NCBI RefSeq assembly: GCF_013170705.1
Contig: NZ_CP033334.1
Span: 6,425,501-6,489,500, forward strand
Reading direction: 5' to 3'
DNA: 64,000 nt
Source: Mesorhizobium loti
Lineage (GTDB): Bacteria; Pseudomonadota; Alphaproteobacteria; Rhizobiales; Rhizobiaceae
Shown one piece after another: positions 2,560-54,412 of this stretch. Made by a program: the position numbers and the translations under genes. Each line of letters starts with the position of its first letter. Position 1 is the stretch's first letter. The notes under the pieces are model-generated. The model made no database searches. It saw only the letters and a program-made list of their open reading frames with translations, and had not been told where the DNA came from.

Positions 2560-2790
2560 TTACAGCTTACCCCACCGCTTTTCAGCAGCTTTCTTCGCAA
2601 TCTCTGCCCGGCGCTCTGGCGTCATGTTCTCGGCGCGCTTCTTGCCGCCCTTTGAGCCAAGCGCCTTGGCGGCAGGGTCTTTGCCGTCGTCAACGTCCTC
2701 GGCTTCATCGCCAGTGGCAATGCGCATGACGCGGACGGCGTTGCCGATCACGTCGGTGGGGCGCTTCTGTCCTTTAGGTCCCGTGGGCAT
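2560..2790 (-). CDS. Small basic KGG-type protein downstream of darTG
   Basis: 76-residue, lysine/alanine-rich protein with a GSKGGKKRAENMTPERR motif and a C-terminal AEIAKKAAEKRWGKL. Such short proteins are widespread in alphaproteobacteria, sometimes labelled RNA-binding, without proven function. Its ATG overlaps the darG stop (TAATG), so it is the third gene of the darT-darG operon. Whether it belongs functionally to the toxin-antitoxin system is unknown; the translational coupling is what the sequence shows. Confidence 0.6.
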   Translation of the reverse strand: MPTGPKGQKRPTDVIGNAVRVMRIATGDEAEDVDDGKDPAAKALGSKGGKKRAENMTPERRAEIAKKAAEKRWGKL

Positions 2791-3869
2791 TAGCTGGCCT
2801 GCACCAAAGAGTTTTCCTTCAAAGCATCCAGGGCTATCTTGATGATGCGATCATCAAACAGCCGCAACTTCCGCTCAGCCGCATCCTCGCCACCGGGCCA
2901 TTTGGGCAGGGCAGCCCTGATCTCATTCACTTGGGGGGCAACCTTTTCGTGGCGCATCAACCAATCGACGGTCGCAAGCAACTCCATCCCCAGGGGAGAC
3001 TCGAAGCCGTCGATAAGCTTGCTGGTGGCCTCCAAAGCTGATCGATATGGCTTTGCTTCAGCGGTAGAAAAGTAGGCAGAGACGCGTTCCTTTCGCTCAT
3101 CATCAAAATGAATTGGCTCAAAGGGGCCGGCATCACCAAGTCGCTTATCGCAATGTAAATAGCTTCCATCCAGAGCATTCAGCATATGCTTCATCTTGTC
3201 CGAATACGGTCCATATTTATTGGCTCCGAATTCGAATTTCATCTCATCCAAGCCCTCTCGGTTCGCGAATCTCTCCACGAAATAGCCAAGTTTCTGAACT
3301 TCCAGCAACGAGCACTGGATTCCAAGAATACAATATCTCCTAACAAGTTCAGCTATCAGCGCTCGCGCTGGAGTCAACTTATCTACGCCGGCACGCTTGG
3401 CCACGTTCTGGTATTGTCGGGTCGGCTCGTAAACAAGAACTTCGACATCATTTAGCGAATCAAGCTTAGACAGGATTATCTCGCGAACTTCAGGCCAATC
3501 TAAGCCGCCGTTGCCAGCACCCAAAGGTGGAATAGCTATGGATTTGATGTTGTTATGTTCCACGACAGCTTTAAGATCGTCCAAGCCCTTTGCTATCCAT
3601 TCGATCTTAGATGGATATCGCCAGTGCGCCTTAGTGGGAAAGTTGATTATCCATTTCGGGCCATAGAGGTCGTTCCGCTCCGTAACGAACATCTCGCCAA
3701 GCCGCACGCGCTTATCCTCACAAGCGGCTTCGTAAAGCTTGAAGTTTTCGGGGAATGCCTCTTTGAACATCAAGGCGACGCCCTTCCCCATCACGCCGAC
3801 GGTGTTGACGGTGTTCACCAGAGCTTCAGTGTCAGCTTCAAGTAGGTTGCCACGGACAAACTTGACCAT
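2790..3869 (-). CDS. darG: DarG macrodomain antitoxin (DNA ADP-ribosyl glycohydrolase)
   Basis: 359-residue protein. Residues 1-150 form a macrodomain (MVKFVRGNLLEADTEALVN, NTVGVMGKGVALMFKEAFP, PPLGAGNGGLDW), the ADP-ribose-binding signature of DarG. The C-terminal half (about 160-359) is the family's toxin-binding domain. Known DarG removes ADP-ribose from DNA bases modified by DarT and also binds DarT directly. The ATG overlaps the darT stop as TGATG, which favours the start at 3869 over an upstream in-frame ATG at 3881. Domain order and the partner gene are canonical. Confidence 0.9.
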   Translation of the reverse strand: MVKFVRGNLLEADTEALVNTVNTVGVMGKGVALMFKEAFPENFKLYEAACEDKRVRLGEMFVTERNDLYGPKWIINFPTKAHWRYPSKIEWIAKGLDDLKAVVEHNNIKSIAIPPLGAGNGGLDWPEVREIILSKLDSLNDVEVLVYEPTRQYQNVAKRAGVDKLTPARALIAELVRRYCILGIQCSLLEVQKLGYFVERFANREGLDEMKFEFGANKYGPYSDKMKHMLNALDGSYLHCDKRLGDAGPFEPIHFDDERKERVSAYFSTAEAKPYRSALEATSKLIDGFESPLGMELLATVDWLMRHEKVAPQVNEIRAALPKWPGGEDAAERKLRLFDDRIIKIALDALKENSLVQAS

Positions 3870-4501
3870 CAGAGGAACCATCTCCTTTCTGCCAGGACCT
3901 TCACCTTAGCGCCTGCTTTCGCGGCGGCAGCCTCGATCTCGGCTTTTGCGTTTTCGTCATAGCAAACGATGCCAAGCAGGGCAGTGAGCGGAACGTGCTT
4001 ATATACAAGCGCTTCAGCCTGATATTTCTCGAACTTGTCGATGTCATCTTTCTTGAAATCGCGCGCTTGCAGGGTCAGCCAGATAATCCAGTTCAGATCG
4101 GCCAAATCGTCCGAGAACTGCGCCAACTTCAGATAGGCGTGCCGGTCGGTAAACACAAACGGAACCTCTAACTTGGCCAGGTGATGCAGCGAAGATACGA
4201 GGATCACGATGTCTCGCATCGAGCGCTGCTTGATGCCGTTGTAACCCGTCTTGATGTTGTAGAGCATCGGGCTATAGGGTGTGAAATAGAACGGAACGTA
4301 GTCGCTCAAAGTGCCGCCCGGATCGATCGGAACCGCCTTGTCAGCGCGCTTCTGGATCAGCTCCGGATTCCCGATCTCGATATATTTCTTGCCTTCCATG
4401 GTTGCGCGGCAGTGGCAACCATCAGCCAGCACTGGTCCGATATTGTCCCTGTGGACAATCCGAAAAATGAGCGCTTTCTCTGGGTTGAGGTCTTTGGACA
4501 T
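3869..4501 (-). CDS. darT: DarT DNA ADP-ribosyltransferase toxin
   Basis: 210 residues, close to the ~209 of characterised DarT. Visible family features: the N-terminal IFRIVHRDNIGPVLADGCHC, the NAD-binding region VPFYFTPYSPMLYNI, and QAEALVYKHVPLTAL, which carries the conserved catalytic glutamate. DarT transfers ADP-ribose from NAD+ to DNA and blocks replication; DarTG loci act as toxin-antitoxin and anti-phage systems. The start is set at the ATG at 4501; a GTG at 4540 in the same frame is possible because neither has a clear ribosome-binding site. First gene of a darT-darG-small-ORF operon. Appears intact. Confidence 0.9.
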   Translation of the reverse strand: MSKDLNPEKALIFRIVHRDNIGPVLADGCHCRATMEGKKYIEIGNPELIQKRADKAVPIDPGGTLSDYVPFYFTPYSPMLYNIKTGYNGIKQRSMRDIVILVSSLHHLAKLEVPFVFTDRHAYLKLAQFSDDLADLNWIIWLTLQARDFKKDDIDKFEKYQAEALVYKHVPLTALLGIVCYDENAKAEIEAAAAKAGAKVKVLAERRWFL

Positions 4502-4785
4502 GATTCGCGCGTATGCTGCCACATGCTTAGCGGCAAGCACAGCCCGGAATGGTCGCCGTGGCTACACTGCTGACAAGATTTCAAACTGAGACACTTCTCT
4601 ATTCGGCGTGTTGAGGTCAAGCGCTATCGGGCTTTTCAGTCTCCGGCATTTTGACGTCTTTCGCAGGGCCTTGCTTCTCTGCGGGATCGGCGTTTCGCCC
4701 TCCCAGTATGGGGTCAGAAGAACGAGGCGGCCCAATCTGCCAAGCGTCCTGATCGCACTGTCTCTCTCCTTCCCGGCCTCCTGGA

Positions 4786-5819
4786 TCAGATGGCTGACGC
4801 CATGGTTTCCCGCGTCCAGCGGAACTCGGCGCCGTCCAGCCACATGCGATGCATGATGACCGCCAGGCGACGTGCCAGCGCGACAATTGCTTTGCGCATC
4901 CCGCGCCGCTTGGCGACGTTCATCGCCCAGGTCTTGAGCCACGACCATTTCGTCACGCGAGTCATCAGCGTTTGGGCAGCCTCATAGAGCAACGTCCGCA
5001 TCATGCCGTCCCCGCACAGGGATATGCATCCAACGCGCTTGCTTTCCCCGGACTCGTTGAGCTTCGGCGTCAGTCCCAGGATGGGCCCCACCGCCTTGGA
5101 GTTGCTGAACCGCTGCGGAATGTCGATTGTCGCGGCATAGGCGAGCGCCACAACAGGGCCGACACCGGGAACCGTAATCAAGCGCTGGCAGGTCGCATCA
5201 TTCCTGGCGATCATGAGCACTTTTTTGTGCAGGCGAGCAAATTCGGCACGCAGCTTCCGCCTGGCGGCCAGCAGCGGTTCCATGATTTCTTCGAGATCGG
5301 GCATGCCTTCGACGAGCTCGCGAGTGCGCTCCTCGAACTTCACCGTTCCCACAACACCGACCTTGAGGCCAAAGTCGCGCAGAAGGCCGCGGATGTCATT
5401 CTCGATGGCGATTGCCTTGCCTTGCAGTAGCTTGCGGGCTGTTAGGAGTGCCCGCCGCATCTGGCTCGTGAGCGTTTTCACATGCACCGGGCGGTACAGG
5501 TTGACCCGCATCATCTGCGCGATGCCGCGCGCATCATTGCGATCCGTCTTGTTCGGCTGCGCCTTCAAGAACGCTTTCACATGGCGCGTCTCGATGCAGA
5601 TGACCGGCAACCCGGCCCTGGCCAGCCCCTCGAAAAGCCATTGCGACAACGGCCCAGCCTCGAGGCCGACCCGTTCAATATTCAAGGCAGCATGCTTCAG
5701 CACGGCGAGGAGATCGTCGGGATGGCTGACCACCTTCACCTCACGCCAGATCCTGCCGGTTTCATCAACGATGCAAACGGCAGTCTCACCGCGACATCGA
5801 GACCGATAAAGTACTTCAT
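4786..5819 (-). pseudogene. IS110-family transposase with N-terminal frameshift
   Basis: Nearly full-length IS110 transposase: HPDDLLAVLKHA, VGLEAGPLSQWLF, KAQPNKTDRNDARGIAQMMR, and the C-terminal transposase-20 domain (TVPGVGPVVALAYAATID, GLTPKLNESGES). The natural start (ATG at 5819, MKYFIGLDVA) is out of frame with the rest; the frame changes near 5785, after 10-11 codons, consistent with a small indel. A longer in-frame extension to 5937 exists but is not family-like. Probably inactive. Confidence 0.75.
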
Positions 5820-5946
5820 GCTGCGCTTCCTTCCTGATGCTTGTGGCTGTTTGGACAGACCACGTTCTATCATCAGCTCGAAGCGCAGCACCTTCCTGCT
5901 TCACCATTGAAGAAGGGGCGCAAGCCGAATACCCCATCTACCCCTA

Positions 5947-6959: not shown

Positions 6960-7170
6960 TTGAACGCGGGTTCTGAGTGCGGCTCGACGTTGTTCTGGAA
7001 GCCTACGATTGAAGGCGATCAGCTCACAGCTATCGCGATGGGCCTATTCGATGGCCCAACCGGCTTGCATCTCTCCAAACGCCATTTGTCGGGGACAAGG
7101 ACGATGCTGCGAGATCAGAGACGGTCTACCGCGGAACGACAGCTCGGCGAAAGAACGTCGTTCCTATCGC
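6960..7170 (+). pseudogene. Fragment of a GFA-family (Mss4-fold) protein
   Basis: Reading frames here show AGSECGSTLFWKPTIEGDQL and AIAMGLFDGPTGLHLSK, followed in a second frame by EIRDGLPRNDSSAKERR. These are the C-terminal zinc-binding and closing motifs of glutathione-dependent formaldehyde-activating enzyme/centromere protein V-like (GFA) proteins. The 5' part is missing and there is a frameshift near 7095. The last ~80 bp are repeated at 8690-8775 as part of the downstream tandem duplication. Confidence 0.55.
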
Positions 7171-7216
7171 GCCCAGCAATTTCTGCACCGTTGCGGACAT
7201 CGGTTTGGCGTTCCGG

Positions 7217-8185
7217 TCAGAACGAGGTCCTGATGCCGACCATCACCGTCGCCGCGGCAAAATCGCCGCCGCTCCGATCGTCGTAGCCGCGAGTCTCTGC
7301 GCCGGTCGGAATGTCATAGGTGTTGTAGTCGGCGCGAGCGGTGAACATCTTTTCGTAGGAACCGGAGACGAAGAAGCTGGTCCGCTCGTTGTACTGGTAG
7401 CCGACGCTGCCGCCGACCATCAGAACCGGCGCCGATTCGAAATGATCTTCGAAGCGCAGGTCACGCAGCCAGTGATGATCGGTATCACCGGCCGAGAAGG
7501 TCATGCCGCCCTTCAGCGCAAAGCCGAAGTTCCAGCGATCCTTGACATAGGTCGCATCGATGCCGGCGAAGGCGACCGGCAAGTTCTGCTGGTAGCTGTT
7601 GGACTTTTCGCCTCCTCGGTAGTCGCCAACCGAATCCCGGAAGCCGCCAACGCTCTCGACATAGGAGCCGCCATAGGCAGTCCACTTGACCGAGGTGTAC
7701 TTGAAGCCACCGTTGACGTTGATCAGCAGCTGATCGCTGAGCTGGAAGTCGTGGCCGAGCGCGACGGTTGCCGAATAGAAGTGATCCAGATCGGTCTCGG
7801 AAAAGCGCGAACGGTCGCTCCAGTCGTTCCAGCCATCATTGGTCGAGAAGGCCGGGCTCCAGTCATAGTTTTCCATGTAGCTGTCGCCGCTGAAGGCGAA
7901 CTGGCCGGAAAGCTTGGCGGTCCAGCCGGCCTCGCTGCGCGCCGTCATCTCGGCTGAGATGACCGGAGAGGTGCTTTCCCAGATCAGTTGGCTCAGCTTC
8001 GAGCCGCTGCCGGAAGCCTGATAGACGAGCTCGTTGGCCTCGATGTCGATGACGCCGACGCCGCCGACGAAAGAGAAATTGGGATTGTAGGGCGCCGGTT
8101 CGCTCACCACCGGCTCGCTGGCCATCGCCGGCCAGGCAGCGAACAATGCTGCCGCTCCACCAAAGACTTTCACATACAATTTCAT
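7217..8185 (-). CDS. Omptin-family outer-membrane protease, copy 1
   Basis: 322 residues with a signal peptide (MKLYVKVFGGAAALFAAWPA, cleavage likely after AMA-S) and a ten-stranded omptin barrel ending ..ATVMVGIRTSF with a terminal Phe. Aligning by eye to OmpT, the D210/H212 pair is kept (D236 and H238 in GDTDHHW). At the D83/D85 pair the first Asp is Asn (N106) and the second is kept (D108) in MENYDW. OmpT relies on all four residues, so activity may be altered. Start chosen at 8185, with GAGGG about 9 nt upstream; longer in-frame starts fall in the promoter region. A nod box lies about 90 bp upstream in the same orientation, implying NodD control. Confidence 0.85.
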   Translation of the reverse strand: MKLYVKVFGGAAALFAAWPAMASEPVVSEPAPYNPNFSFVGGVGVIDIEANELVYQASGSGSKLSQLIWESTSPVISAEMTARSEAGWTAKLSGQFAFSGDSYMENYDWSPAFSTNDGWNDWSDRSRFSETDLDHFYSATVALGHDFQLSDQLLINVNGGFKYTSVKWTAYGGSYVESVGGFRDSVGDYRGGEKSNSYQQNLPVAFAGIDATYVKDRWNFGFALKGGMTFSAGDTDHHWLRDLRFEDHFESAPVLMVGGSVGYQYNERTSFFVSGSYEKMFTARADYNTYDIPTGAETRGYDDRSGGDFAAATVMVGIRTSF

Positions 8186-8275
8186 AAAACTACCCTCACA
8201 GGAATCATCCGCCATTCGGCCATACGCGGCGTACCGGGTGCACGTCACGTGCGGTCGTCTATGCAGCGCCCTGGA

Positions 8276-8322
8276 CGTTTGGCAAAATTGATTGTTTAGA
8301 TCGGAGCATCCACGCTATGGAT
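8276..8322 (-). promoter_or_regulatory. nod box upstream of omptin copy 1
   Basis: On the minus strand this matches the ~47-bp nod box: ATCCAT, then ..GTGGATG, ATC, AAACAATCAATTTT and GCCAAAC, with canonical spacing (21 bp between the first ATC and the second). It points toward the omptin gene and sits next to a divergent nodD stub, the classical nodD / nod box arrangement. NodD with flavonoids activates transcription from such sites. Confidence 0.9.
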
Positions 8323-8332
8323 AGCTAAAACC

Positions 8333-8503
8333 GTGCATTTCCAATGGCTTGATCTGAACCTGCTCGTCGTGCTCGATGCACTGCTGAGCGAGCGCAACCT
8401 GACGGCGGCGGCAGCAGCATCAACCTAAGTCAGCCGGCCATGAGCGCGGCCGTCGCCCGGCTGCGCGATTATTTCAACGATGAACTGGTCGTCCGTGAAC
8501 AAT
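8333..8503 (+). pseudogene. nodD: Truncated nodD (LysR-family) copy 1
   Basis: From a GTG start the frame gives FQWLDLNLLVVLDALLSERN then LTAAAA; after a small deletion the homology continues in another frame as INLSQPAMSAAVARLRDYFN then DEL. This is the NodD winged-helix N-terminus (about 55 residues); everything after the HTH is lost. It cannot act as a regulator. Divergent from the nod box and omptin gene. Confidence 0.85.
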
Positions 8504-8824
8504 GAAAGCGGATCAGGCGGCGACAGGTTTTGTCAGGCACTTGGCCGCCGGTGCTCGGGCTCACCGCCCGCAAGCCAGCGTTCGACAGTTCTCAACGTGC
8601 CAATCTGGGGCGCGATCTGTCGCGGTGATAGACCGGCTCCCAACTGAAGCATTTCAGCATGGAACTCGCTGCGCTGGTTGCGCCTCGACGAAGGACGACT
8701 GCTGCGAGATCAGAGACGGTCTACCGCGGAACGATAGCTCGGCGAAAGAACGTCGTCCCTATCGCGCCCACCGATTTCTGCGCCGTGCGGACATCGGTTT
8801 GGCGTTCCGGTCCGGTTCGTTCAA

Positions 8825-9790
8825 TCAGAACGCGGTCTTGATGCCGACCATCACCGTCGCCGCGGCAAAATCGCCGCTCATCGAGTCGTTGCCGCCAATC
8901 TCTGCGCCGGTCGGCATGTCATAGAGTTTGGAGTCGGCGCGAGCGGTGAACATCTTTTCGTAGGAACCGGAGACGAAGAAGCTGGTCCGCTCGTTGTACT
9001 GGTAGCCGACGCTGCCGCCGATCATCAGAACCGGCGCCGATTCGAAATCTTCCTCGTAGCGCTGGTCAGGGATCCAGTGATGATCGGTACCGCCGGCCGA
9101 GAAGGTCATGCCGCCCTTCAGCGCAAAGCCGAAGTTCCAGCGATCCTTGACATAGGTCGCATCGATGCCGGCAAAGGCGACCGGCAAGTTCTGCTGGTAG
9201 CTGGCGACCTTTGTGTCTCCTGGGTAGTCGCCCACCGAATCCCGGAAGCCGGCACCGCTGATGACGTAGGAGCCGCCATAGGCAGTCCACTTGACCGAGG
9301 TGTACTTGAAGCCACCGTTGACGTTGATCAGCAGCTGATCGCTGACCTGGAAGTCGTGGCCGAGCGCGACGGTTGCCGAATAGAAGTGATCCAGACCGGT
9401 GTCGGAATGACGCGAACGGCTGCTCCAGTCATTCCAGCCATCATTGGTCGAGAATGGCGGGAACCAGGCATAGTATTCCATGTAGCTGTCGCCGCTGAAG
9501 GCGAACTGGCCGGAAAGCTTGGCGGTCCAGCCGGCCTCGCTGCGCGCCGTCATCTCGGCTGAAATGACCGGAGAGGTGCTTTCCCAGATAAATTGGCTTA
9601 GCTTCGAGCCGCTGTAGCGACTCTGATTGACTAGCTCGTTGGCCTCGATGTCGATGACGCCGACGCCGCCGACGAAAGAGAAATTGGGATTGTAGGGCGC
9701 CGGTTCGCTCACCACCGGCTCGCTGGCCATCGCCGGCCAGGCAGCGAACAATGCTGCCGCTCCACCAAAGACTTTCACATACAATTTCAT
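8825..9790 (-). CDS. Omptin-family outer-membrane protein, copy 2 (catalytic Asp pair lost)
   Basis: 321 residues, collinear with copy 1 and with the same signal peptide. In the region matching OmpT D83/D85 it reads MEYYAW, so both catalytic aspartates are gone (Y106, A108), while D/H of the second pair remain (GTDHHW). It is therefore probably not a standard omptin protease; it may bind ligand, act as an adhesin, or be decaying. The reading frame is intact and the upstream nod box (9881-9927) is complete, arguing for retained expression. Start at 9790 as in copy 1. Confidence 0.85.
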   Translation of the reverse strand: MKLYVKVFGGAAALFAAWPAMASEPVVSEPAPYNPNFSFVGGVGVIDIEANELVNQSRYSGSKLSQFIWESTSPVISAEMTARSEAGWTAKLSGQFAFSGDSYMEYYAWFPPFSTNDGWNDWSSRSRHSDTGLDHFYSATVALGHDFQVSDQLLINVNGGFKYTSVKWTAYGGSYVISGAGFRDSVGDYPGDTKVASYQQNLPVAFAGIDATYVKDRWNFGFALKGGMTFSAGGTDHHWIPDQRYEEDFESAPVLMIGGSVGYQYNERTSFFVSGSYEKMFTARADSKLYDMPTGAEIGGNDSMSGDFAAATVMVGIKTAF

Positions 9791-9880
9791 AAAACTACCC
9801 TCACAGGAATCATCCGCCATTCGGCCATACGCGGCGTACCGGGTGCACGTCACGTGCGGTCGTCTATGCAGCGCCATGGA

Positions 9881-9927
9881 CGTTTGGCAAAATTGATTGT
9901 TTAGATCGGAGCATCCACGCTATGGAT
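9881..9927 (-). promoter_or_regulatory. nod box upstream of omptin copy 2
   Basis: Same match as at 8276-8322, with the ATCCAT, GATG and AAACAATCAATTTT blocks preserved. Oriented toward the second omptin gene, about 90 bp from its ATG. Confidence 0.9.
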
Positions 9928-9938
9928 AAGCTAAAACC

Positions 9939-10110
9939 GTGCGTTTCCAATGGCTTGATCTGAACCTCCTCGTCGTGCTCGACGCACTGCTGAGCGAGCG
10001 CAACCTGACGGCGGCGGCAGCAGCATCAACCTAAGTCAGCCGGCCATGAGCGCGGCCGTCGCCCGGCTGCGCGATCATTTCAACGATGAACTGGTCGTCC
10101 GTGAACAATG
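9939..10110 (+). pseudogene. nodD: Truncated nodD copy 2
   Basis: GTG start, FQWLDLNLLVVLDALLSERN, same small deletion in the HTH, then INLSQPAMSAAVARLRDHFN and DEL. Same truncation as copy 1, so truncation preceded duplication. Confidence 0.85.
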
Positions 10111-10115
10111 AAAGC

Positions 10116-10235
10116 GGGTCAGGCCGCGACGGGTTTTGTCAGCCGCTTGAGCGCTGCGATGAGCAGCCAGAAGCTGCCTGAACCAGTTAAGCAGCAGCGA
10201 GACGTCGTAACCGGCGGCCGCCAGGATGGCGGTGC
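10116..10235 (-). pseudogene. C-terminal fragment of IS5-superfamily transposase
   Basis: AILAAAGYDVSLLLNWFRQL and following residues match the C-terminus of the transposase at 1884-2516. Only about 40 codons remain. Confidence 0.6.
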
Positions 10236-10519
10236 GCCTTTTAAATCGGACGCTTCTTGGATATTCCACACTTGGGTGTGAACCGGTTGCCCGGCGAGCT
10301 GTCGCTAGAAGTCCGTCTTTGCGACAATCACAATATGGCCTTTCAGGTCAAAATGTCGAGGAAAACCCGGATTTCGCAGATGGAAGGTATGGGCACCCCT
10401 GCATCGGTTGCCCCAAAATGGGGCCACGACCCCACGATTCCAAGAGGTAAGCCTGTCTATCTCTCTCTCCCCACAAGCGAAACTCCGCGGTTGGCGCCGC
10501 CGACACGGCAGAGAAGCAG

Positions 10520-10709
10520 CCGATCGGCTTTATTGGCACGATCACGCTGCAGAATTTTCCCGGCTTCAATGGTCGCGCGCAAGATCTCGCCGGCACTGGC
10601 GGCGGGCTGCACCGAGATATTGAAACCCGCCGAACAGACGCCGCTTTTTGCAGGCGCAATGGTTGCGCTCGCGGGAGAGGCAGGCTTTCCCGAAGGCGTC
10701 GTCACCTGA
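10520..10709 (+). pseudogene. Aldehyde dehydrogenase (gabD-like) fragment
   Basis: A short frame reads [18 protein letters not shown] then [20 protein letters not shown] and ends [15 protein letters not shown]. This matches residues ~155-220 of the intact gabD at 22876-24333 (NAD-binding loop). The preceding residues are in another frame (IGTITLQNF). Relic of a second gabD copy. The adjacent stretch 10240-10520 holds nothing I can assign. Confidence 0.65.
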
Positions 10710-10748
10710 TCTGTGCCTGCAAACGCGATGCCGCCGGCTGCACACTGA

Positions 10749-11153
10749 TTAGCTGATGAACTTGATCCACAGGCGCTTGAACCATGCGAGGATGGCCCCG
10801 AGCCCCTTCGGCTGGGCACCGCGCTTGAGAAGGCGGTCATAGGCGCGGCCGGCTTCGATCTGCTCGCGAGACATCTTGCCCGCCCAATGGATTCGGCCAC
10901 GTTTGATGATGTAGTGTGAGCCACAAGGGAAGTCGTGGTTGCCGATCGACGGCCAGATCGAGGCGCCCTCGTCCTCCATGACAAAGTCATATTCGGTTGC
11001 AACGAGCGGTGTTGAAACCTCCTCGCCACACCCACAGGCGCAATTATGGAGGGCAACGTGGCATTGGCGCGACACGTAAAGGACCCCGTCTTCCAGCTGT
11101 TCGGGAATGTCTTCGACAAAGACCGTTGCAAGACAATCCACCCGAGCCATCAT
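10749..11153 (-). CDS. DUF6527-type protein of multi-ubiquitin operon
   Basis: 134 residues with the family pattern: an N-terminal strand, a cysteine cluster (HNCACGCGEE) where DUF6527 proteins usually carry CPC/CGC metal-binding residues, then PSIGNHDFPCGSHYIIKRGR and a tryptophan (IHWAG). This small domain is recurrently encoded beside multi-ubiquitin and E1/E2-like genes; its biochemical role is not established to my knowledge. Its ATG overlaps the stop of the E2-E1 gene (ATGA), so it is the last gene of a three-gene operon. The Cys cluster suggests metal binding (inference). Confidence 0.75.
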   Translation of the reverse strand: MMARVDCLATVFVEDIPEQLEDGVLYVSRQCHVALHNCACGCGEEVSTPLVATEYDFVMEDEGASIWPSIGNHDFPCGSHYIIKRGRIHWAGKMSREQIEAGRAYDRLLKRGAQPKGLGAILAWFKRLWIKFIS

Positions 11154-12337
11154 GCCCCCCGGTTCGTGATATTGTTGCCCTCGATCATGTACGTCGCGTT
11201 CTTTTCGTTGCGTTCATCACGATAGAAGGTCAGCCAGCGCTTCCAGCGCATAATCGCCATGATCGCGTTCAACGAATTGAGCTCGGCGATCTGGATTTCG
11301 GTGCCGTACACATCGGCCTCTTCATCGTCGTCACCGAACGACAGATGGGTCGCCACTTCCGCCCAGGGCGTGCCGGGGGCAATGAAAGTCGCCCGTGCGC
11401 AGCCGTCGAGCGTGTTGTCGTCGAGCCCAAGACCAATGCCAGTGTCGACGAACGGAATGCCCAGGCGAACCAACCCTTCGGCAATGACGCGCCGCGACGA
11501 TCCCTTGTCAACACAGACAAAGACGAAGTCATAACCTGCAAATTCATCAATGTTGTCAGCCTTGACCCTGGTGGCGTGCGGCTTCACGCCCTTGTGCATA
11601 CGCGCGTAAAGCGCTGCGTAATAATCTACCTTGCGGGGAAAATTCTTCGCCAGCGCCAGTTCGGGAGCACCGGGCGAACGGAAAAGATTGTGGTTGAGAA
11701 GTTGATCGTCGTCGTAGATGTGGATCTCGGCAACGCGGGTCTTGGCGGCGAGATCGAGCAGATAGGCACCTGTGCCGCCAAGGCCGATGATAGCAATGCG
11801 GCCCTTGAGCTTGCGGTTGGCGATGACGATTCCATAGCGGGCTGACGCAGAATCGGGGATCGCGAAGGGGCTATCGTCCTCCGCGCTGGCTAACGTGACG
11901 CCTGTGCGCGCGTTCGCGGTCTTGTCGTGCGACCGCGCAGCGGCGCCGAGGTGAGATTCGTAGGTGACGACCTTGTCGTAAATGTTGGCATACCGGCCAG
12001 TCCCTTCTGGCTTCGACGAGAAGTAATGGTGGACCTTGATGTCGGATCCGACGGTCGCCTCGTTGCTGTTGTGGATGATATTGGTCATCGGCGTACCATC
12101 GCGATGGCAAGGCGTCTCTCCGGTGAACCACATGGTGTGGCCGGTTTGTGGAGTCGAGGTCAGGCCTTCGCTATCCAGCGACAGAATGCAGACAAGCGTG
12201 CCGCGGCCAAGCGACATGTCGCGCTTCACGTAGGGCACGCTGTGAACGAGAAGGACGAGCTCGCGCATCTCGAGCTCAAACCCCTCGTCCAGCAGCCGCT
12301 TCAGATGCGGATCACGACTTATCAGATCGGCGGACAT
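11150..12337 (-). CDS. E2-like / ThiF-type E1 fusion protein
   Basis: 395 residues. The N-terminal ~150 (RDPHLKRLLDEGFELEMREL, GRGTLVCILSLDSEGLTSTP, WFTGETPCHRDG) match the DUF6791/E2-like domain paired with bacterial E1 enzymes. Residues ~190-395 are a ThiF/E1 adenylyltransferase: IAIIGLGGTGAYLLDLAAKT nucleotide loop, then DDDQLLNHNLFRSPGA, where N and R of the active site are visible, and FVFVCVDKGSSR. Such enzymes adenylate the C-terminus of ubiquitin-like proteins. Start taken at 12337, overlapping the multi-ubiquitin gene by 26 bp. The fused E2 and E1 and the neighbours define a self-contained conjugation-type system. Target unknown. Confidence 0.8.
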   Translation of the reverse strand: MSADLISRDPHLKRLLDEGFELEMRELVLLVHSVPYVKRDMSLGRGTLVCILSLDSEGLTSTPQTGHTMWFTGETPCHRDGTPMTNIIHNSNEATVGSDIKVHHYFSSKPEGTGRYANIYDKVVTYESHLGAAARSHDKTANARTGVTLASAEDDSPFAIPDSASARYGIVIANRKLKGRIAIIGLGGTGAYLLDLAAKTRVAEIHIYDDDQLLNHNLFRSPGAPELALAKNFPRKVDYYAALYARMHKGVKPHATRVKADNIDEFAGYDFVFVCVDKGSSRRVIAEGLVRLGIPFVDTGIGLGLDDNTLDGCARATFIAPGTPWAEVATHLSFGDDDEEADVYGTEIQIAELNSLNAIMAIMRWKRWLTFYRDERNEKNATYMIEGNNITNRGA

Positions 12338-12968
12338 TGAAGACCATCCCGTTCTTGACTTCGATCTTCTCGCCCTCGACCAGATCACCTTCCGCGCCGT
12401 GGACACCTTTCAGGTAGGTGATCGTGTACTTGAACTTCTCAAAATCGGCGTCGGGGTATGCGAGCAGTGCAATCTCGCGATAGCTGTGCTTTCTCCGGGG
12501 TATCGTGCGCGATCGACCGTTGATCTTGATGACCACCGTTTTCGCCTCGCGGCTGCGGATGCGCTCGACGCCATGTCCGCCAAGAACCACCGCGCCATCG
12601 GCGGGAATGACCGTATCGCCGGCGCTGTCCAGGATCAGCTCGAGTTCCTCGGCGATGCTGGCGTAGCGGTAGATGTCGGACGCGGAGATTGTCGCCGCCC
12701 CCCACTCCCAGCCACGCTCGTTGACGGTGAAAGAGAAGGTGCTGTCGCCTTTGAATGAAAGGAACTCAGGCTGGGGCATCTGTCGCAGGTCGATCGCTTC
12801 CTCAAGGCCGATCGAACGCGATGTCCTGTCGGCTATCTGGATGAGAATATAGTCGCTGGCTGGATCAAGCCCACCGCTGTTGCGGACCGCGCGACCTGAA
12901 ACGATGGCGTCATCGGTAGCCACCACGCGGCCGTTCAGCTTATATGTAAAGTTCGCTGCGTCAGGCAT
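12312..12968 (-). CDS. Multi-ubiquitin-domain protein
   Basis: 218 residues with three ubiquitin-like (beta-grasp) repeats: ~6-65 (FTYKLNGRVVATDDAIVSGR ...), ~68-140 (FLSFKGDSTFSFTVNERGWE ...) and ~145-218 (VVIKINGRSRTIPRRKHSYR ...). It ends NVRRSDKS without a Gly-Gly, so processing or a different linkage would be needed. This is the poly-ubiquitin protein of prokaryotic Ub-like operons described by comparative genomics. ATG at 12968 has AAGGAGG 5 nt upstream, which settles the start against a longer frame at 13022. First gene of the operon; an AT-rich region separates it from the divergent RHH gene. Confidence 0.85.
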   Translation of the reverse strand: MPDAANFTYKLNGRVVATDDAIVSGRAVRNSGGLDPASDYILIQIADRTSRSIGLEEAIDLRQMPQPEFLSFKGDSTFSFTVNERGWEWGAATISASDIYRYASIAEELELILDSAGDTVIPADGAVVLGGHGVERIRSREAKTVVIKINGRSRTIPRRKHSYREIALLAYPDADFEKFKYTITYLKGVHGAEGDLVEGEKIEVKNGMVFNVRRSDKS

Positions 12969-12979
12969 CGAAGCCTCCT

Positions 12980-13095
12980 TGTTTCTCATTCTGCCCAAAA
13001 CATATATGCAATTTTTAGCCAATGTCTAGCTAATTAATGGCTATTTTGTAATTATTTTTTGATTGACAATTATGGAGTTTATAGCTACGTAAACG
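12980..13095. promoter_or_regulatory. AT-rich divergent promoter region
   Basis: The gap between the multi-ubiquitin gene (minus) and the RHH gene (plus) is far richer in A/T than its surroundings and must carry both promoters. No specific operator is evident, although TAGCTAATTAATGGCTA around 13030 is an imperfect dyad that could bind the RHH protein. Confidence 0.45.
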
Positions 13096-13116
13096 ATGCC
13101 GGTTAGGGAGGCGCCT

Positions 13117-13323
13117 ATGAAGCGTACAATGACGCTTAACCTGTCGGACGCGGAAATGAGCGTCCTTGAAGCCATGTGTGAAGAAAAAGGGTTGTCCAAA
13201 ACCGCGCTCGTTCGCCAGGCGCTGCGGCTCTACAAATCAGTCGACGATCGACTGGCGCGTGGCGAAAAGGTGTTTGTCGAAAGCGCCGATAAATCAGAAA
13301 AAGTAGAGCTGATGGTTCTATGA
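13117..13323 (+). CDS. Ribbon-helix-helix (CopG/Arc-like) protein
   Basis: 68 residues with an N-terminal RHH fold: strand MKRTMTLNLSD, then AEMSVLEAMCEEKGLSKTAL and VRQALRLYKSVD. Proteins of this type are DNA-binding antitoxins or autorepressors. ATG at 13117 is preceded by GGGAGG with 6-nt spacing; an in-frame ATG at 13096 lacks one. The stop overlaps the next start (ATGA), so it is translationally coupled to the acetyltransferase-like gene, as expected for an antitoxin-toxin pair. Confidence 0.75.
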   Translation: MKRTMTLNLSDAEMSVLEAMCEEKGLSKTALVRQALRLYKSVDDRLARGEKVFVESADKSEKVELMVL

Positions 13324-13967
13324 AAGAGCTGATCGATCGCGTCTTTCTCTTAAATCGCGCAACAGGCCGGTTCGAAGATGCAGATCTGTATCACGGCCTG
13401 GACAGCACCAATCTCGCGCATATCGAAGGACGCTGGCGACCGCTTTTTGAGTTGCGTCGCAGGGAAGCCAAGGCCTCTCTTCAGACTTTAGCGGAGGTCA
13501 ATGGCGAAGACGCCCATTGGGAATGGGGCAAGAAGGCGCTGGCTGCGCTGAACGACCCGTTCCTGTTCGATTTCTTCGTGCTCGAATGTGGTGGCAGCAC
13601 ACAGGCCATCATGATGACGCGCAAAGGTGGCCAAGACTGCTTCAGTCGCCATCCCGAGCATCAGCGAGTGCCGCTGATCTACGTGGAGTTTCTGGCGACG
13701 GCGCCATGGAATCGACCAAAGCTGGTTGCTGAGCCGACTTACAAGGGTGCGGGGCGTGCGCTCGTTGGCACAGCCGTCAGCTTGAGCCTGGAAGAAGAGT
13801 TTGGTGGCCGGATCGGTCTGCATTCCCTTCCTGGCGCAGAAGTTTTCTACCGGGATGCGATCGGAATGACGGATCTTGGAGCGGATAGCGAAGGGGTGCA
13901 TAAAGGGCTGAGATACTTCGAGCTTTCCAGCAGGGATGCTGCGACTTTCCTTTCCGTGCAACACTAA
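13320..13967 (+). CDS. GNAT-like acetyltransferase domain protein (possible toxin partner of RHH)
   Basis: 215 residues. The C-terminal part shows a GNAT-type acetyl-CoA loop (YKGAGRALVGTAVSLSLEEE) followed by GLHSLPGAEVFYRDAIGMTD, reminiscent of the motif-B tyrosine region of GNATs (xxFYxxxGM). The N-terminal ~90 residues are unassigned. Known RHH-GNAT toxin-antitoxin pairs acetylate aminoacyl-tRNA, but their toxins are shorter (~160-175 aa) and the antitoxins usually DUF1778. Here the call as a toxin is inference from gene coupling only; a housekeeping acetyltransferase is possible. Confidence 0.55.
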   Translation: MKELIDRVFLLNRATGRFEDADLYHGLDSTNLAHIEGRWRPLFELRRREAKASLQTLAEVNGEDAHWEWGKKALAALNDPFLFDFFVLECGGSTQAIMMTRKGGQDCFSRHPEHQRVPLIYVEFLATAPWNRPKLVAEPTYKGAGRALVGTAVSLSLEEEFGGRIGLHSLPGAEVFYRDAIGMTDLGADSEGVHKGLRYFELSSRDAATFLSVQH

Positions 13968-13982
13968 CAAGAGGAGTCGACC

Positions 13983-14510
13983 ATGAAATTACATTTCACT
14001 GCCGATTGGCTACGCAGCCATATCGAACATGATCCAGATGTCGATTGCGACGCGGGACTCCCGCTGCGCGATGCAGCTCCGCTTGAGCGTCTTATGCAGG
14101 AGAAGTCTCGTCATCAAGCAACCGCGGGGCAGCCTTCGGCTGCCCCCGAACAGAAATCTGTTGTGCTGTTTAAATTGGTGCATCAGCTTCGACGCAAGGA
14201 CGGATTGAGCATTGCGCAGTTGGCTGCCAAAATTCGTGTTGATGCGGCGGAATTGGAGAAGGTGGAAAAGGATCCCTGCTATGTTCCAGGCCCGCGTACC
14301 GTTCATCAGCTGGCCGAGTTCATTGGGGTTTCAGCACGTGCTGTAGAACAGCTGACCGCGGCGTCGTCTGCGCAGAACGACAATCTCACCGAAGCGGCGC
14401 ATCGTTTTGCCGCGAGTTCGGACGACCTATCGAAGCTAAGCCAGGCTGAAAGGCGCGACCTCAACGATTTCGTCAAGGTACTGGCGTCAATCGATAAGAA
14501 GAATGGATGA
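13983..14510 (+). CDS. XRE-type helix-turn-helix protein
   Basis: 175 residues. A Cro/C1-like HTH lies at about residues 60-118 (LVHQLRRKDGLSIAQLAAKI ... PGPRTVHQLAEFIGVSARAV). The C-terminal ~50 residues are helical (SSDDLSKLSQAERRDLNDFV). RBS GAGGAG 6 nt before the ATG. Its stop overlaps the next start (ATGA), pairing it with an ImmA/IrrE metallopeptidase, a common regulator-protease arrangement in which the protease cleaves the repressor. Confidence 0.75.
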   Translation: MKLHFTADWLRSHIEHDPDVDCDAGLPLRDAAPLERLMQEKSRHQATAGQPSAAPEQKSVVLFKLVHQLRRKDGLSIAQLAAKIRVDAAELEKVEKDPCYVPGPRTVHQLAEFIGVSARAVEQLTAASSAQNDNLTEAAHRFAASSDDLSKLSQAERRDLNDFVKVLASIDKKNG

Positions 14511-15463
14511 CCATGTCCGCGATTGAGCCGATAATTGGGGACTTTGAGCGCCAAGATATCCATGAGCACATATCACGTTTGCTCCGTGATCTCGGCAATC
14601 CAGAGCCCCCGTTACGGCTCGAGCAGGTACGCGCGCTGCAAAAGCTTGACCTTACCTATTACAGCAAAGCGAACCTGAGCCTACTGGATGAGATCGCCCA
14701 CCGGGCGCGAATCGCTGGCAACGAGATCACCAGTACGGCCAAGCGCATGGTCGATGTCGTCCAGCAATATGGCCTTCGTGGTATCCTTATGCTGAAGGAA
14801 GGCGACAAGCGGATCTTCATCGATGATGATGTGGCCGAGCTGAAGCGACGCTTCCTCATCGCACATGAGATTACGCATGACCTTCTGCCTTGGCATCGCT
14901 CCCTGCTTCTGGGCGACAATGAGTCGACGCTGAATCCGACATTCCATCAGGCAATGGAGGCGGAAGCCAATTATGGCGGGCGCCGTCTGTTGTTTCTCGG
15001 GGGAAGATTTCGTCCCGAAGCGCTCGACTGCTCATTTGAATGGAAGAGCATCGAGCAGCTTCGCAAGCGCTACGGGAACACCCTTACGACAACGCTTTGG
15101 CAAATGGTTTGCGAACGCGATCCGGAATTTCCTGCCTTCGGCGTTGTCAGCCGGCATCCCTATCACAGGGATATCTGCGAGAAGGCGGGCAATGACAATG
15201 TGGCCTATTTCCCGAGATCGAAAGCGCTTGCTGAGCACTTTCCCGGCATCACCACCGAAGTTGCCTATTCCGCCATCTGCGATCACGCAACGAACCGCAA
15301 GCGGGGTCCGGTGGGCGAAGGCGAAAGCATCTTTTATGACGCGAACGGCGAACCGCATATATTCTGGTTGCACAGCTTCTCAAATACTTATGATTTGCTC
15401 ACTTACTGCATCTATAAGAAGAAACACCAACGCATTTCTCCCGTCGGCTTCAGGGCAGCCTGA
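14507..15463 (+). CDS. ImmA/IrrE-family zinc metallopeptidase
   Basis: 318 residues. The zinc motif HEITH (FLIAHEITHDLLPWH, about residues 121-135) matches HEXXH of ImmA/IrrE proteases; EAEANYGGRRLLF supplies the downstream glutamate region. The C-terminal half (FPAFGVVSRHPYHRDICEKA ...) is an extension not assigned. ImmA cleaves HTH repressors during mobile-element induction. Translation is coupled to the XRE gene. It is a longer, intact counterpart to the broken XRE-ImmA gene at 1.1-1.7 kb. Confidence 0.8.
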   Translation: MTMSAIEPIIGDFERQDIHEHISRLLRDLGNPEPPLRLEQVRALQKLDLTYYSKANLSLLDEIAHRARIAGNEITSTAKRMVDVVQQYGLRGILMLKEGDKRIFIDDDVAELKRRFLIAHEITHDLLPWHRSLLLGDNESTLNPTFHQAMEAEANYGGRRLLFLGGRFRPEALDCSFEWKSIEQLRKRYGNTLTTTLWQMVCERDPEFPAFGVVSRHPYHRDICEKAGNDNVAYFPRSKALAEHFPGITTEVAYSAICDHATNRKRGPVGEGESIFYDANGEPHIFWLHSFSNTYDLLTYCIYKKKHQRISPVGFRAA

Positions 15464-16833
15464 TTACCAACAGACGGGTATTTCAAGTGCCCGATGACAG
15501 CACAAAGGCGGCCGCTTGCGGCCCGAGGCTGCCGGAAAGCAATGCCCCGCATTCCAGCCGCTCAGTCGATCGTTGCGCTCTTTGAAGCGGACGAACTGTC
15601 GAGAGCTGTGGGATGCGGTAGCGGTATTTTGCCTTGTCGGGAGGCCTGAACGCGCTGCAGATAGCGGCCCATCAGCGGCCAAACGGTCGAGTCGATCAGC
15701 GAGCCCTCGAGGACGTACCTGCCGTGCCTTTGAAAACGGCGGATCCGACAGATGCCCGTAAGGATCGCTGCCTTCGTTGGAAACCTGGTTTTCCCCGCTT
15801 CGCCTCGCAGCCATGCGGTCCGACGAAAAAACTGCTGTCAGGGCGGCCACACAAATCCGATGGCAGAGGAACAATCCGGCATTACGAAACGAGCGCGGCC
15901 GATGCGAAATATGTGGGTCTGTCTTTCCTCTCAGGGAGTCTTTCGACTCCGGACATGGGTACTGCCAGCTCTCGTCGGCAATCGTGCCTTCCCTGGGCTC
16001 GGCGGTCTCACGCAGAGCGAAGCGAGCGGGGTAAATACCGTGATGCCGGCGGACCGTGACGACTGGCCCCACTTTACCCTTTGAGCCCGGCGACCTCGAT
16101 CTGATCCGGCGTGGCCGATGGGGACAAGGACTTCTCCGAGCCTGCACTGATGCGAGGGACCGCTCCGTAAGCGGGTTTGGTCGAAAGAGACTGATCAGCG
16201 CAAGGGCATTATTCGCATCACCACATAAACATCTCGTTATATGGCAATTAACAAGAAGCGAAGTGCCGGTGATTGTGCGCATGTCATCCGACCGAGCGAA
16301 CTTAGTTCGGCAGGTTCAAGACTCTGCTGGCGATGACGGCTCCGCTGGTCTCTCGTTCCACCGAGCAGGGCTGCAACCGTCTGTACATGGTGAAGAGCGA
16401 GACCAAGGACGCGGTGGCGCTTATTGCCGAGACCCTTATGGCACGCCCTGAAGCCGTTCAGCAAACGCTCGAATCGCCGGATCGCTGTCTGGGACAGGCC
16501 GCAGCCGAACGGGCCCGGCAGCTCGCCCAGCTGGATGATTGATCCAGGTTCTGCAGATCGAAGAGCGGCGCTTGGTCACCGAGAGCGCCGCTGTGCTAAA
16601 GCGTAGGCTCGAAGCCGAAACGGAGGTCGATCGCCAGGAGGCGTCACAAGGCCGCTTCGTCGCAGAACGTGAGGAAGTCCAAGCCAAAACGCTGATGCCA
16701 AAGGCACGGAGGTGCCCTGACCTGCGAAAATAATCAACTATCGACCATTCGGCTGTAGCATTAGGATGGTCCGCTCGCATTCCCTCACATTGTGCGACAG
16801 GTTGCTGTGAGCAGCCCATAGCAAACTCTGAGT
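15464..16833. other. Stretch without a recognisable intact gene
   Basis: No frame here carries a family signature. Two short plus-strand frames at 16333-16731 encode charged helical sequence (IEERRLVTESAAVLKRRLEA) that may be a coiled-coil remnant. The part at 16216-16289 is a duplicate of the metE promoter region. Most likely decayed DNA. Confidence 0.5.
16216..16289 (+). repeat. Displaced copy of the metE promoter segment
   Basis: About 74 bp closely matching 24415-24488, including CATCTCGTTATATGG and GTGATTGTGCGCATGTCAT. The copy stops just where the cobalamin riboswitch begins at metE, and what follows here is unrelated. The shared CATCTCGTTATATG is an imperfect dyad and could be an operator. 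Confidence 0.75.
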
Positions 16834-53009: not shown

Positions 53010-54412
53010 GAGGTAAGCAGCTGAAAGAGGCGCGGGTTCTGCTCCCGAGAAACTGTCTGCGCCCGCGCTGTTCCGTCGACATGCGTGACGGCCTTCAACC
53101 TGCTATCGAGAACCTTCTGGAAAAAAAGCATGTAGGGCGACGGGCGTGCCAAATCGAAATGGAGCGCGACGTCCTGCTCCAGGCAAACCGGTGCGATCGG
53201 GCGGAAACCCTCCCGGTTCTTGATGCGGTTTAAGCGCTCATGGGTTGCCTTTGAGAAGGGTGCTGCGAGAATCGATCGATTGCCGAGCGCCCGTGGCCCG
53301 ATCTCGCAATTCCCCTGGACCCAGCCGATCACTTTGTTGCTGAGCAACGCCGAGGTAACTTGGTCGTAGTCGAGCGGATGGGCCTCGAGTCCGGTCCGGT
53401 CGATCTCGTCAAATATAAAAGGCTGACCTGAATAGACGTTCCATTTAATCTTAGCGTTGCCAGTGAAATGCCGCATCGCGTCGACTGCGGTTCCGATTGC
53501 CGACCCTGCGTCGTTTGTGCATGGAGAAATGAAAACATCGGAAAAAAGGTTTGTTTCTACCCACCGGCGGTTCCACTCACAATTCAACCCGCACCCGCCG
53601 CCAATCAGCAGAGGGAATCCCTTTGTGAGGTTTTTCTTCGCAAAGGTGTGGAACGAATCGAAGATGGCGTCCGAAAATCGCCTAGCAAGGTTGGTGAACT
53701 TCTGATGGGTTACGCCAATATTGGAGTAGGGCGAACTCCGCAAATCCTCATTATACAACCGGTTCGGATCGCTTGGAAGCAGGAAATCTATTAGCGCCTG
53801 CTCGTCCCGGTCAGGCGATCCCGCCTCCCCATAGGCGCAAAGCGCCATTAGCTTGCCGGCATCTTCGTAGCGAAACCGTTCTTGGGGCAATGTGAATTTC
53901 GGATCAGCCAGGGCATAGAGGAACGAATACTTCTCGCCAGGGCCTGCCATCACTTTTCCTAAATGCACGACCTGCAGGCACTCATCGATTTCATAGAAAT
54001 CGCCGAGTAATCCTTCCCAGGTCAGCACATAACAGGGCATTCCGGTGGGAAATGGGGACATGCCATAGGAGCACCAAAGATGGGAGCGTTCGTGCGTAGA
54101 AGAATAGAAATGCACCCTCCTGCCGAAGATTGTCTTCTCGCCGACAATCTCGGACCCTGCGGCTATCCCGCAGTAGTCTGCCGCGTCGGAGACGTGGCGT
54201 CTGAATCCTGCCCTCTCCCACCCACCGACAGCAACCACATCCGGAATGGCGTCCAGGCGGCCAGCGGCGTCGAGGACAGTCGTAGGGGTAACTGCCGAAT
54301 ATCTAGGGAAGCTATCTTTCTCAGCCTCGTACGAATAGATGAGCTCGGCTGATGACGTATCTAGTGCTGCAATTGTGCCGTCATGGTGCGGTTTAAATGA
54401 AATTATCCTCAT
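53002..54412 (-). pseudogene. nodU: nodU 5' part (Nod-factor carbamoyltransferase), interrupted
   Basis: About 470 codons of a NodU/CmcH-type carbamoyltransferase: MRIISFKPHHDGTIAALDTS, HERSHLWCSYGMSPFP (metal-binding His region), LIGGGCGLNCEWNRRWVETN, WVQGNCEIGPRALGNRSILA, and REQNPRLFQLLTSFK where IS66 enters. Read-through into the IS adds a foreign tail up to 52826. NodU places a carbamoyl group on the non-reducing end of Nod factor; loss would change Nod-factor decoration. No nod box was found in the 460 bp upstream. Confidence 0.9.

What the first reader, a model, noticed from the sequence alone, without database searches (positions are those of the whole stretch)
7103..10142. NodD-regulated omptin genes in tandem
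Two omptin-family genes each follow a full-length nod box in the correct orientation, with a nodD stub divergent from it. Omptins are known mainly as virulence-linked outer-membrane proteases; placing them under flavonoid/NodD control predicts a surface protein made at the time of host recognition, perhaps cutting plant defence peptides or remodelling the bacterial surface. The nod boxes stayed almost identical while the coding regions changed, suggesting selection on expression.
Basis: partly seen in the sequence, partly recalled or inferred. Interest (0 to 1): 0.85.

Follow-up and report, generated by a model that had tools for sequence, protein, structure and literature searches.

The report
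Nod-box omptins with broken active sites
A nodulating Mesorhizobium carries two neighbouring copies of an outer-membrane protease gene behind plant-signal switches, as already published for related strains, but both copies have changed key cutting residues while their outward-facing loops evolve fast, so they may bind something at the plant surface rather than cut it.

Summary
In detail: two tandem omptin genes (PF01278), each behind a nod box in the right orientation, each with a broken nodD remnant pointing away. The coupling is already in print: Perry et al. 2020 (PMC7643969) report ompT paralogues behind nod boxes in broad-host-range (GII) Mesorhizobium symbiosis islands, and note a one-base deletion between the two halves of the box. 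The window's boxes show it (46 bp, not 47), so they are not full length and inducibility is doubtful. Not found in print with the terms searched: (1) catalytic Asp83/Asp85 (OmpT numbering) are Asn/Asp in copy A and Tyr/Ala in copy B, but intact in 17 of 17 distinct orthologues; (2) some extracellular sites of the family are under diversifying selection while the rest is constrained; (3) those 17 lack a recognisable box yet keep a leader like that of a nodD-nodA promoter, joined at one position inside the box. I read the pair as NodD-linked, surface-exposed pseudoproteases (B most likely inactive, A crippled or altered) that bind rather than cut. Whether they are expressed, and what they bind, is untested.

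The parts
7094..8543 (-). repeat unit A: omptin A, leader, nod box, nodD stub
   Evidence: BLASTN: 93.1% over 1469 columns with 8687-10149
8687..10149 (-). repeat unit B
7217..8185 (-). omptin A (322 aa); Asp83->Asn (residue 106), Asp85/Asp210/His212 kept (108/236/238)
8825..9790 (-). omptin B (321 aa); Asp83->Tyr and Asp85->Ala, Asp210/His212 kept
8277..8322 (-). nod box A, 46-bp form, 2 of 38 mismatches; ends 91 bases before the ATG
9882..9927 (-). nod box B, identical to box A
8228..8276 (-). leader A, homologous to the leader of nodD-nodA promoters; also present in box-less orthologues
9833..9881 (-). leader B, by alignment with leader A
8334..8487 (+). nodD remnant A (nodD-homologous part), frame broken, divergent from the box
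9940..10093 (+). nodD remnant B, with the same one-base break
8290..8290 (-). position where DNA homology to the box-less orthologues begins, inside the nod box

Best explanation
Two tandem omptin-fold outer-membrane proteins sit behind a nodA-type promoter (nodD remnant, 46-bp variant nod box, nod leader) in the symbiosis region. SHOWN by sequence: fold family, boxes, promoter relationship, loss of the Asp83/Asp85 pair (both in B, Asp83 only in A), diversifying selection at a class of sites of the family, mostly extracellular, and constraint on the rest. INFERRED: NodD1/NodD2 set their expression. B is a catalytically dead pseudoprotease and A is crippled or altered. Both act by binding through the former active-site groove and the five variable loops, as a surface adhesin, decoy or trap for a host-derived peptide or surface ligand, rather than by cleavage.
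For: PF01278 hits far above cut-off (137.2 and 116.7 against 22.6 bits). Model of A: pLDDT 91.7; the 11 best solved-structure hits are all omptins (OmpT 1i78_B: TM 0.82 by query, 0.92 by target). Model of B: pLDDT 90.3 with the same strand order, no fold search run. Asp83/Asp85/Asp210/His212 are intact in 114 of 122 aligned omptins; the 8 exceptions include both window copies and the two database proteins nearest to them, P0001 and P0004 (M. loti NZP2037). All 17 distinct orthologues are intact. Mutation of these four sites abolished OmpT activity (PMC11410778, passages). M2a over M1a: 2dlnL 51.5, 8% of sites at omega 5.4, 8 of 9 top sites in the extracellular half; null simulations reach at most 7.95 in 40 sets. 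Rest of the protein omega 0.31. A and B differ in 42 residues, 38 in the extracellular half. P0001 and P0004 group with A and B respectively and bear the same changed active sites. An omptin is described as adhesin and invasin as well as protease (PMC7696990, start of abstract in listing 69).
Against: No expression data. The box lacks one base, and that spacing inhibited induction in a published reporter. Asp83->Asn keeps a polar side chain, so A may retain activity. Selection also acts in the 17 box-less orthologues (2dlnL 32.8), so diversification is not tied to the box or to loss of the active site. The catalytic codons 106 and 108 are not among the sites with posterior above 0.9, and the extracellular half as a whole has omega 0.96. 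Loop dS is also raised (0.136 against 0.023 in the barrel), which points to recombination or gene conversion; the codon test assumes none. N-versus-S enrichment between A and B alone is not significant (Fisher p = 0.32). Four scattered omptins outside this clade also lack an intact tetrad, so such loss is not unique to nod-box genes. Loss within this clade may be only one or two events. The ligand is unknown.
Confidence: 0.5

Rival explanations
1. Active NodD-induced proteases that cut plant defence peptides or remodel the surface, with an altered catalytic mechanism that tolerates the changed Asp pair.
For: Asp210 and His212 are kept in both copies and Asp85 in A. The non-extracellular half is constrained in the family. 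Ser-99, once thought catalytic, is kept in the GII paralogues according to PMC7643969.
Against: Mutation of the four sites, Asp83 and Asp85 among them, abolished OmpT activity (PMC11410778). B lacks both, A lacks Asp83. Seventeen of 17 box-less orthologues keep both.
Confidence: 0.15
2. Decaying paralogues: the one-base deletion weakened the box, expression fell, selection relaxed and the active site eroded; no present function.
For: Box shortened relative to nodA boxes. Among the close orthologues only the box-bearing window copies have a changed active site. nodD is already broken. The region is full of rearrangement.
Against: Both frames open. 38 of 42 residue differences lie in the extracellular half. 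Leader plus box differs at 1 of 137 against 16 of 331 in neighbouring non-coding DNA. P0001 differs from A at only 3 residues, none in the extracellular half.
Confidence: 0.25
3. Same binding pseudoprotease, but the loops diversify to escape phage or other bacterial attackers, and the plant is not the driver.
For: Variable outer loops on a conserved barrel are typical of phage receptors (recalled knowledge). Selection also acts in the box-less orthologues.
Against: Does not by itself explain a nodA-type promoter or the changed Asp pair. No phage data.
Confidence: 0.1

Closest known systems
nod-box ompT paralogues (ompT1, Mln327 and others) of GII Mesorhizobium symbiosis islands, Perry et al. 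2020 PMC7643969
   Same: Two or three omptin paralogues per island, each behind a nod box with one base deleted between the halves; signal peptide; rapid divergence suggested. The window genome also has a nodU-like gene beside a nod box and a second nodA.
   Different: The paper, as far as I read it (abstract, passages, section 20), cites Ser-99 as the crucial catalytic residue; I saw there nothing on the Asp pair, on a test of loop selection, on the leader shared with box-less orthologues, or on nodD remnants.
Enterobacterial omptins (OmpT/ArlC, PgtE, Epo)
   Same: Fold, family, Asp210-His212 dyad, extracellular groove with five loops.
   Different: OmpT has all four catalytic residues and cuts (PMC11410778); window copies lack Asp83 (A) or Asp83 and Asp85 (B) and sit behind a nod promoter.
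Box-less Mesorhizobium/Aminobacter omptin orthologues (17 distinct sequences)
   Same: 85-88% identical to copy A over nearly its whole length; same leader downstream of the junction.

Membership tests
Omptin (PF01278) | profile match over the whole domain | tested here: met
   137.2 and 116.7 bits, cut-off 22.6, profile 4-282 of 283
Omptin (PF01278) | 10-strand barrel like OmpT | tested here: met
   models A and B; Foldseek of A only, 11 best hits omptins
Omptin (PF01278) | catalytic Asp83, Asp85, Asp210, His212 | tested here: not met
   A: N D D H; B: Y A D H; 114 of 122 aligned proteins D D D H. So omptin-fold members, not demonstrable omptin proteases
Omptin (PF01278) | proteolytic activity needing LPS | not testable with these tools
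   needs an assay
nod box / NodD regulon | sequence match to the nod box consensus upstream of the gene in the right orientation | tested here: met
   2 of 38 mismatches, both copies
nod box / NodD regulon | 47-bp length, canonical spacing between halves | tested here: not met
   one base short; 6 canonical boxes elsewhere in the genome
nod box / NodD regulon | intact NodD in the genome | tested here: met
   NodD ORFs of 301 and 314 aa
nod box / NodD regulon | NodD binding and flavonoid induction | not testable with these tools
   needs footprinting and reporters
GII-type symbiosis island | nod-box nodU, nodFEGA and paired ompT | tested here: inconclusive
   PF02543 (nodU-like) gene beside a nod box, NodA family genes, ORFs that look like nodE and nodG by eye, two ompT; nodO, mln145 and island ends not checked

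The most novel reading that the evidence does not exclude
Nodulating Mesorhizobium make, under NodD, a pair of catalytically dead omptins whose groove and loops have been turned into diversifying ligand-binding surfaces (adhesin, decoy or peptide trap) that take part in legume host range: a symbiotic pseudoprotease class.
Probability: 0.3. Interest if true: 0.75.

Novelty: new variant of a known kind. Interest (0 to 1): 0.5.

Why it matters
ompT is one of seven nod-box genes among the 53 GII-unique genes proposed as candidates for broad host range on Lotus (PMC7643969). If the proteins do not cut, tests designed around proteolysis will miss their role and binding should be tested instead. Loss of the omptin catalytic pair on a maintained barrel gives a natural test of what omptins do besides proteolysis. 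The nod-leader relic in box-less orthologues suggests that NodD-type promoters have been traded on or off the same surface gene.

Tried and rejected
Rejected or downgraded: (1) 'Boxes identical, therefore selected': only leader plus box together is better conserved than neighbouring non-coding DNA (p = 0.03); the box alone is not. (2) A simple loss story in which box-bearing is ancestral: the leader relic suggests an older nod link, but the protein tree rooted on four distant omptins nests the box-bearing clade among box-less genes (ultrafast bootstrap 98 for the split), so a later gain or regain by recombination across the shared leader is equally or more likely. Loop selection may distort that tree. 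(3) Hypermutation by a diversity-generating retroelement: considered because many loop codons vary in bases 1 and 2; set aside because the variable sites span five loops over about 750 bases; I did not search for a reverse transcriptase or template repeat. (4) Extracellular half as a whole at omega above 1: not so (0.96, p = 0.84); only a site class exceeds 1. (5) Plasmids: of 266 records with any match one covers at least 80% of the query, an ompT box-less upstream, matching from window 8290 on. (6) Paper searches: omptin plus 'catalytically inactive' 0 papers; omptin plus 'positive selection' 6, none on rhizobia by title and abstract start; OmpT plus nodule, rhizobia, 'antimicrobial peptide' 0; omptin plus 'nod box', and 'outer membrane protease' plus 'nod box' plus rhizobi, 1 each, Perry 2020. 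No prior report of items 1-3 was seen in the open library held.

Three distant omptins (37-40%) were left out of the codon analysis. Of 157 protein hits only 120 were listed and aligned. Loop ranges were set by eye; searches use strand midpoints of the model, chosen after I had seen the A/B differences. Searches used copy B with one extra residue before its Met. The M1a/M2a code is my own; in the 40 null sets some values are negative (lowest -2.96), so its optimiser is not fully exact. No null simulation was made for the orthologue-only test.
Full report
What is there. The window lies at 6425501-6489500 of a 6.87-Mb single-contig genome. The 11 named loci with a close relative of omptin A are 10 Mesorhizobium and one Aminobacter. 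Two repeat units, 7094-8543 and 8687-10149, are 93.1% identical over 1469 columns. Each holds, read on the minus strand, a nodD remnant pointing away, a nod box, a leader of 91 bases and an omptin gene. The omptins score 137.2 and 116.7 bits against PF01278 (cut-off 22.6) and are the only two matches in the genome.

Nod boxes. Both boxes miss 2 of 38 specified consensus bases; the best sites in 20 shuffled windows miss 13-16. The consensus was recalled, not taken from a call. The canonical form, one base longer, occurs at six other places in the genome with up to 3 mismatches, one of them just upstream of a nodA gene. The short form with up to 3 mismatches to the strict consensus occurs only in front of the two omptins. 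With a slightly relaxed consensus a third short box lies 233 bases upstream of another nodA-family gene (called nodA2 here) and one lies in one other genome; 2 of 146 genomes of the genus have any. The short spacing is therefore rare but not confined to ompT.

nodD. The stub matches two nodD genes of the same genome at 92% and 91% over about 150 bases, and a third place at 89%. The first two are open reading frames of 301 and 314 aa with the NodD N terminus (named by eye). Both stubs lack the same base relative to one of these, so nodD was probably broken before the tandem duplication.

Origin of the promoter. I compared upstream DNA of 17 distinct orthologues. In 11 of 11 named loci BLASTN homology to unit A begins at window 8290; the other 6 sequences show the same join in the alignment, with small indels and, in L034, a deletion in the leader. 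That position lies inside the nod box. No orthologue has a box within 7 of 38 mismatches upstream. Yet the shared leader is related to a nod leader: against the box region at 6378030 (beside a nodD and a partial nodA) four orthologues score 31-36, with a maximum of 17 in 300 shuffles each. Of the other seven non-omptin boxes tested, three score 17-25 (shuffle maxima 15-21) and four are at or near chance. A genome of another genus has the stretch of nodD, box and leader at 89% over 265 columns. I infer that the leader of this omptin clade comes from a nodD-nodA type promoter, while only the window copies have box and nodD remnant attached among the genomes seen here. Which state came first is unresolved: the rooted protein tree places the window clade inside the box-less genes (98), which favours gain or regain by recombination over the shared leader. 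In 8 of 11 named loci the omptin follows the whole block that lies at window 16.8-22.5 kb, in the other 3 its near end; on a named plasmid of Mesorhizobium sp. 131-3-5 the upstream neighbours are a GNAT acetyltransferase and a threonine aldolase.

Active site. Alignment to OmpT structures puts residues 106, 108, 236 and 238 on Asp83, Asp85, Asp210 and His212. Copy A reads N D D H and copy B Y A D H. In a 122-row alignment (A, B and 120 listed hits of 157) 114 rows are D D D H; the 8 others are A, B, P0001, P0004 and four scattered proteins (P0019, P0067, P0075, P0110) whose promoters I did not see. All 17 orthologues are intact. P0001 (a cluster of 5 sequences that may include the window's own) differs from A at 3 residues, and P0004 (M. 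loti NZP2037) from B at 12, 8 of them in the extracellular half. So the changed sites are not sequencing errors of this genome. A 2024 study states that mutation of the four catalytic sites abolished OmpT proteolysis (PMC11410778, passages); the substitutions used were not found in the text.

Selection. Between A and B, 42 codons differ in residue, 38 in the extracellular half (164 of 322 codons; binomial p = 7e-8), and 16 of the 42 have more than one base changed. Ten codons differ only silently, 8 of them in the same half, so the contrast of replacement and silent changes by region is not significant for this pair alone (p = 0.32). Over 19 sequences a site class with omega 5.4 (8% of codons) is supported: 2dlnL 51.5, against at most 7.95 in 40 sets simulated without such a class. 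Eight of nine sites with posterior above 0.9 are extracellular, and they include 110 and 112 beside Asp85 and 234 beside Asp210, but not 106 or 108 themselves. The 17 orthologues alone also show it (2dlnL 32.8; 12 of 14 sites extracellular). The extracellular half as a whole has omega 0.96, the remaining half 0.31 (all) and 0.30 (orthologues). Recombination is not modelled, and loop dS is raised.

Structure. Model A: pLDDT 91.7; the 11 best Foldseek hits are omptins, TM 0.68-0.82 by query and 0.83-0.92 by target; the adhesin OpcA follows at rank 13, after FadL, with TM 0.48 by query and 0.61 by target. Model B: pLDDT 90.3, same strand order. These are predictions from alignments that contain intact omptins and say nothing about activity.

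What is already known. Perry et al. 2020 (PMC7643969; [quoted passage not shown] leguminosarum reporter, and suggest rapid evolution. They cite Ser-99 as the crucial catalytic residue. A 2013 paper on the NZP2037 island (PMC4070662, passages) reports 16 nod boxes, with nodU, nodO and nodFEGA behind some. The window genome has a similar set: a nodU-like gene next to a nod box, ORFs that look like nodE and nodG, a second nodA, and two ompT.

Verdict. The finding as written is largely a rediscovery. What I add is that the pair has lost part (A) or all (B) of the Asp83-Asp85 pair, that outer sites of the family diversify under selection, and that box-less orthologues carry a nod-type leader joined inside the box. 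The reading as binding pseudoproteases under NodD is an inference at about 0.5; decay is the strongest rival.

Noticed in passing
window 2790-4540 (-): Macro-domain protein beside DarT (PF14487, E 3.6e-53): a DarTG-type toxin-antitoxin pair about 2.7 kb from omptin A.
   Followed up: partly
window 10749-13022 (-): DUF6527, DUF6791-ThiF and Multi_ubiq genes in a row: a ubiquitin-like conjugation cluster next to unit B; the block 10514-15812 lies downstream of ompT in L021 (M. intechi), so its position varies.
   Followed up: partly
window 4786-5937 (-): IS110-family transposase near the omptin repeat.
   Followed up: partly
L024 7265-7311: M. loti DSM 2626 has a canonical nod box (3 mismatches) about 300 bases downstream of its box-less ompT; the gene it faces was not examined.
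   Followed up: no
G000:C1:6696003-6696048 (in L060): Short-spaced nod box upstream of a second nodA, so the one-base-short form is not unique to ompT.
   Followed up: partly
box-less orthologues, about 15 bases upstream of the junction (e.g. L018): A TTCCT-N9-AGGAA inverted repeat is present in 15 of 17 box-less orthologues (not in L022 and L025; read by eye): possibly the operator of another regulator.
   Followed up: no
G000:C1:6376048-6377954 and 6385442-6385528: Partial nodA matches beside nodD copies: the nod region has probably been duplicated and rearranged.
   Followed up: partly
window 53483-54139 (-): A third PF02543 (carbamoyltransferase) match of the genome lies inside the window.
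   Followed up: no
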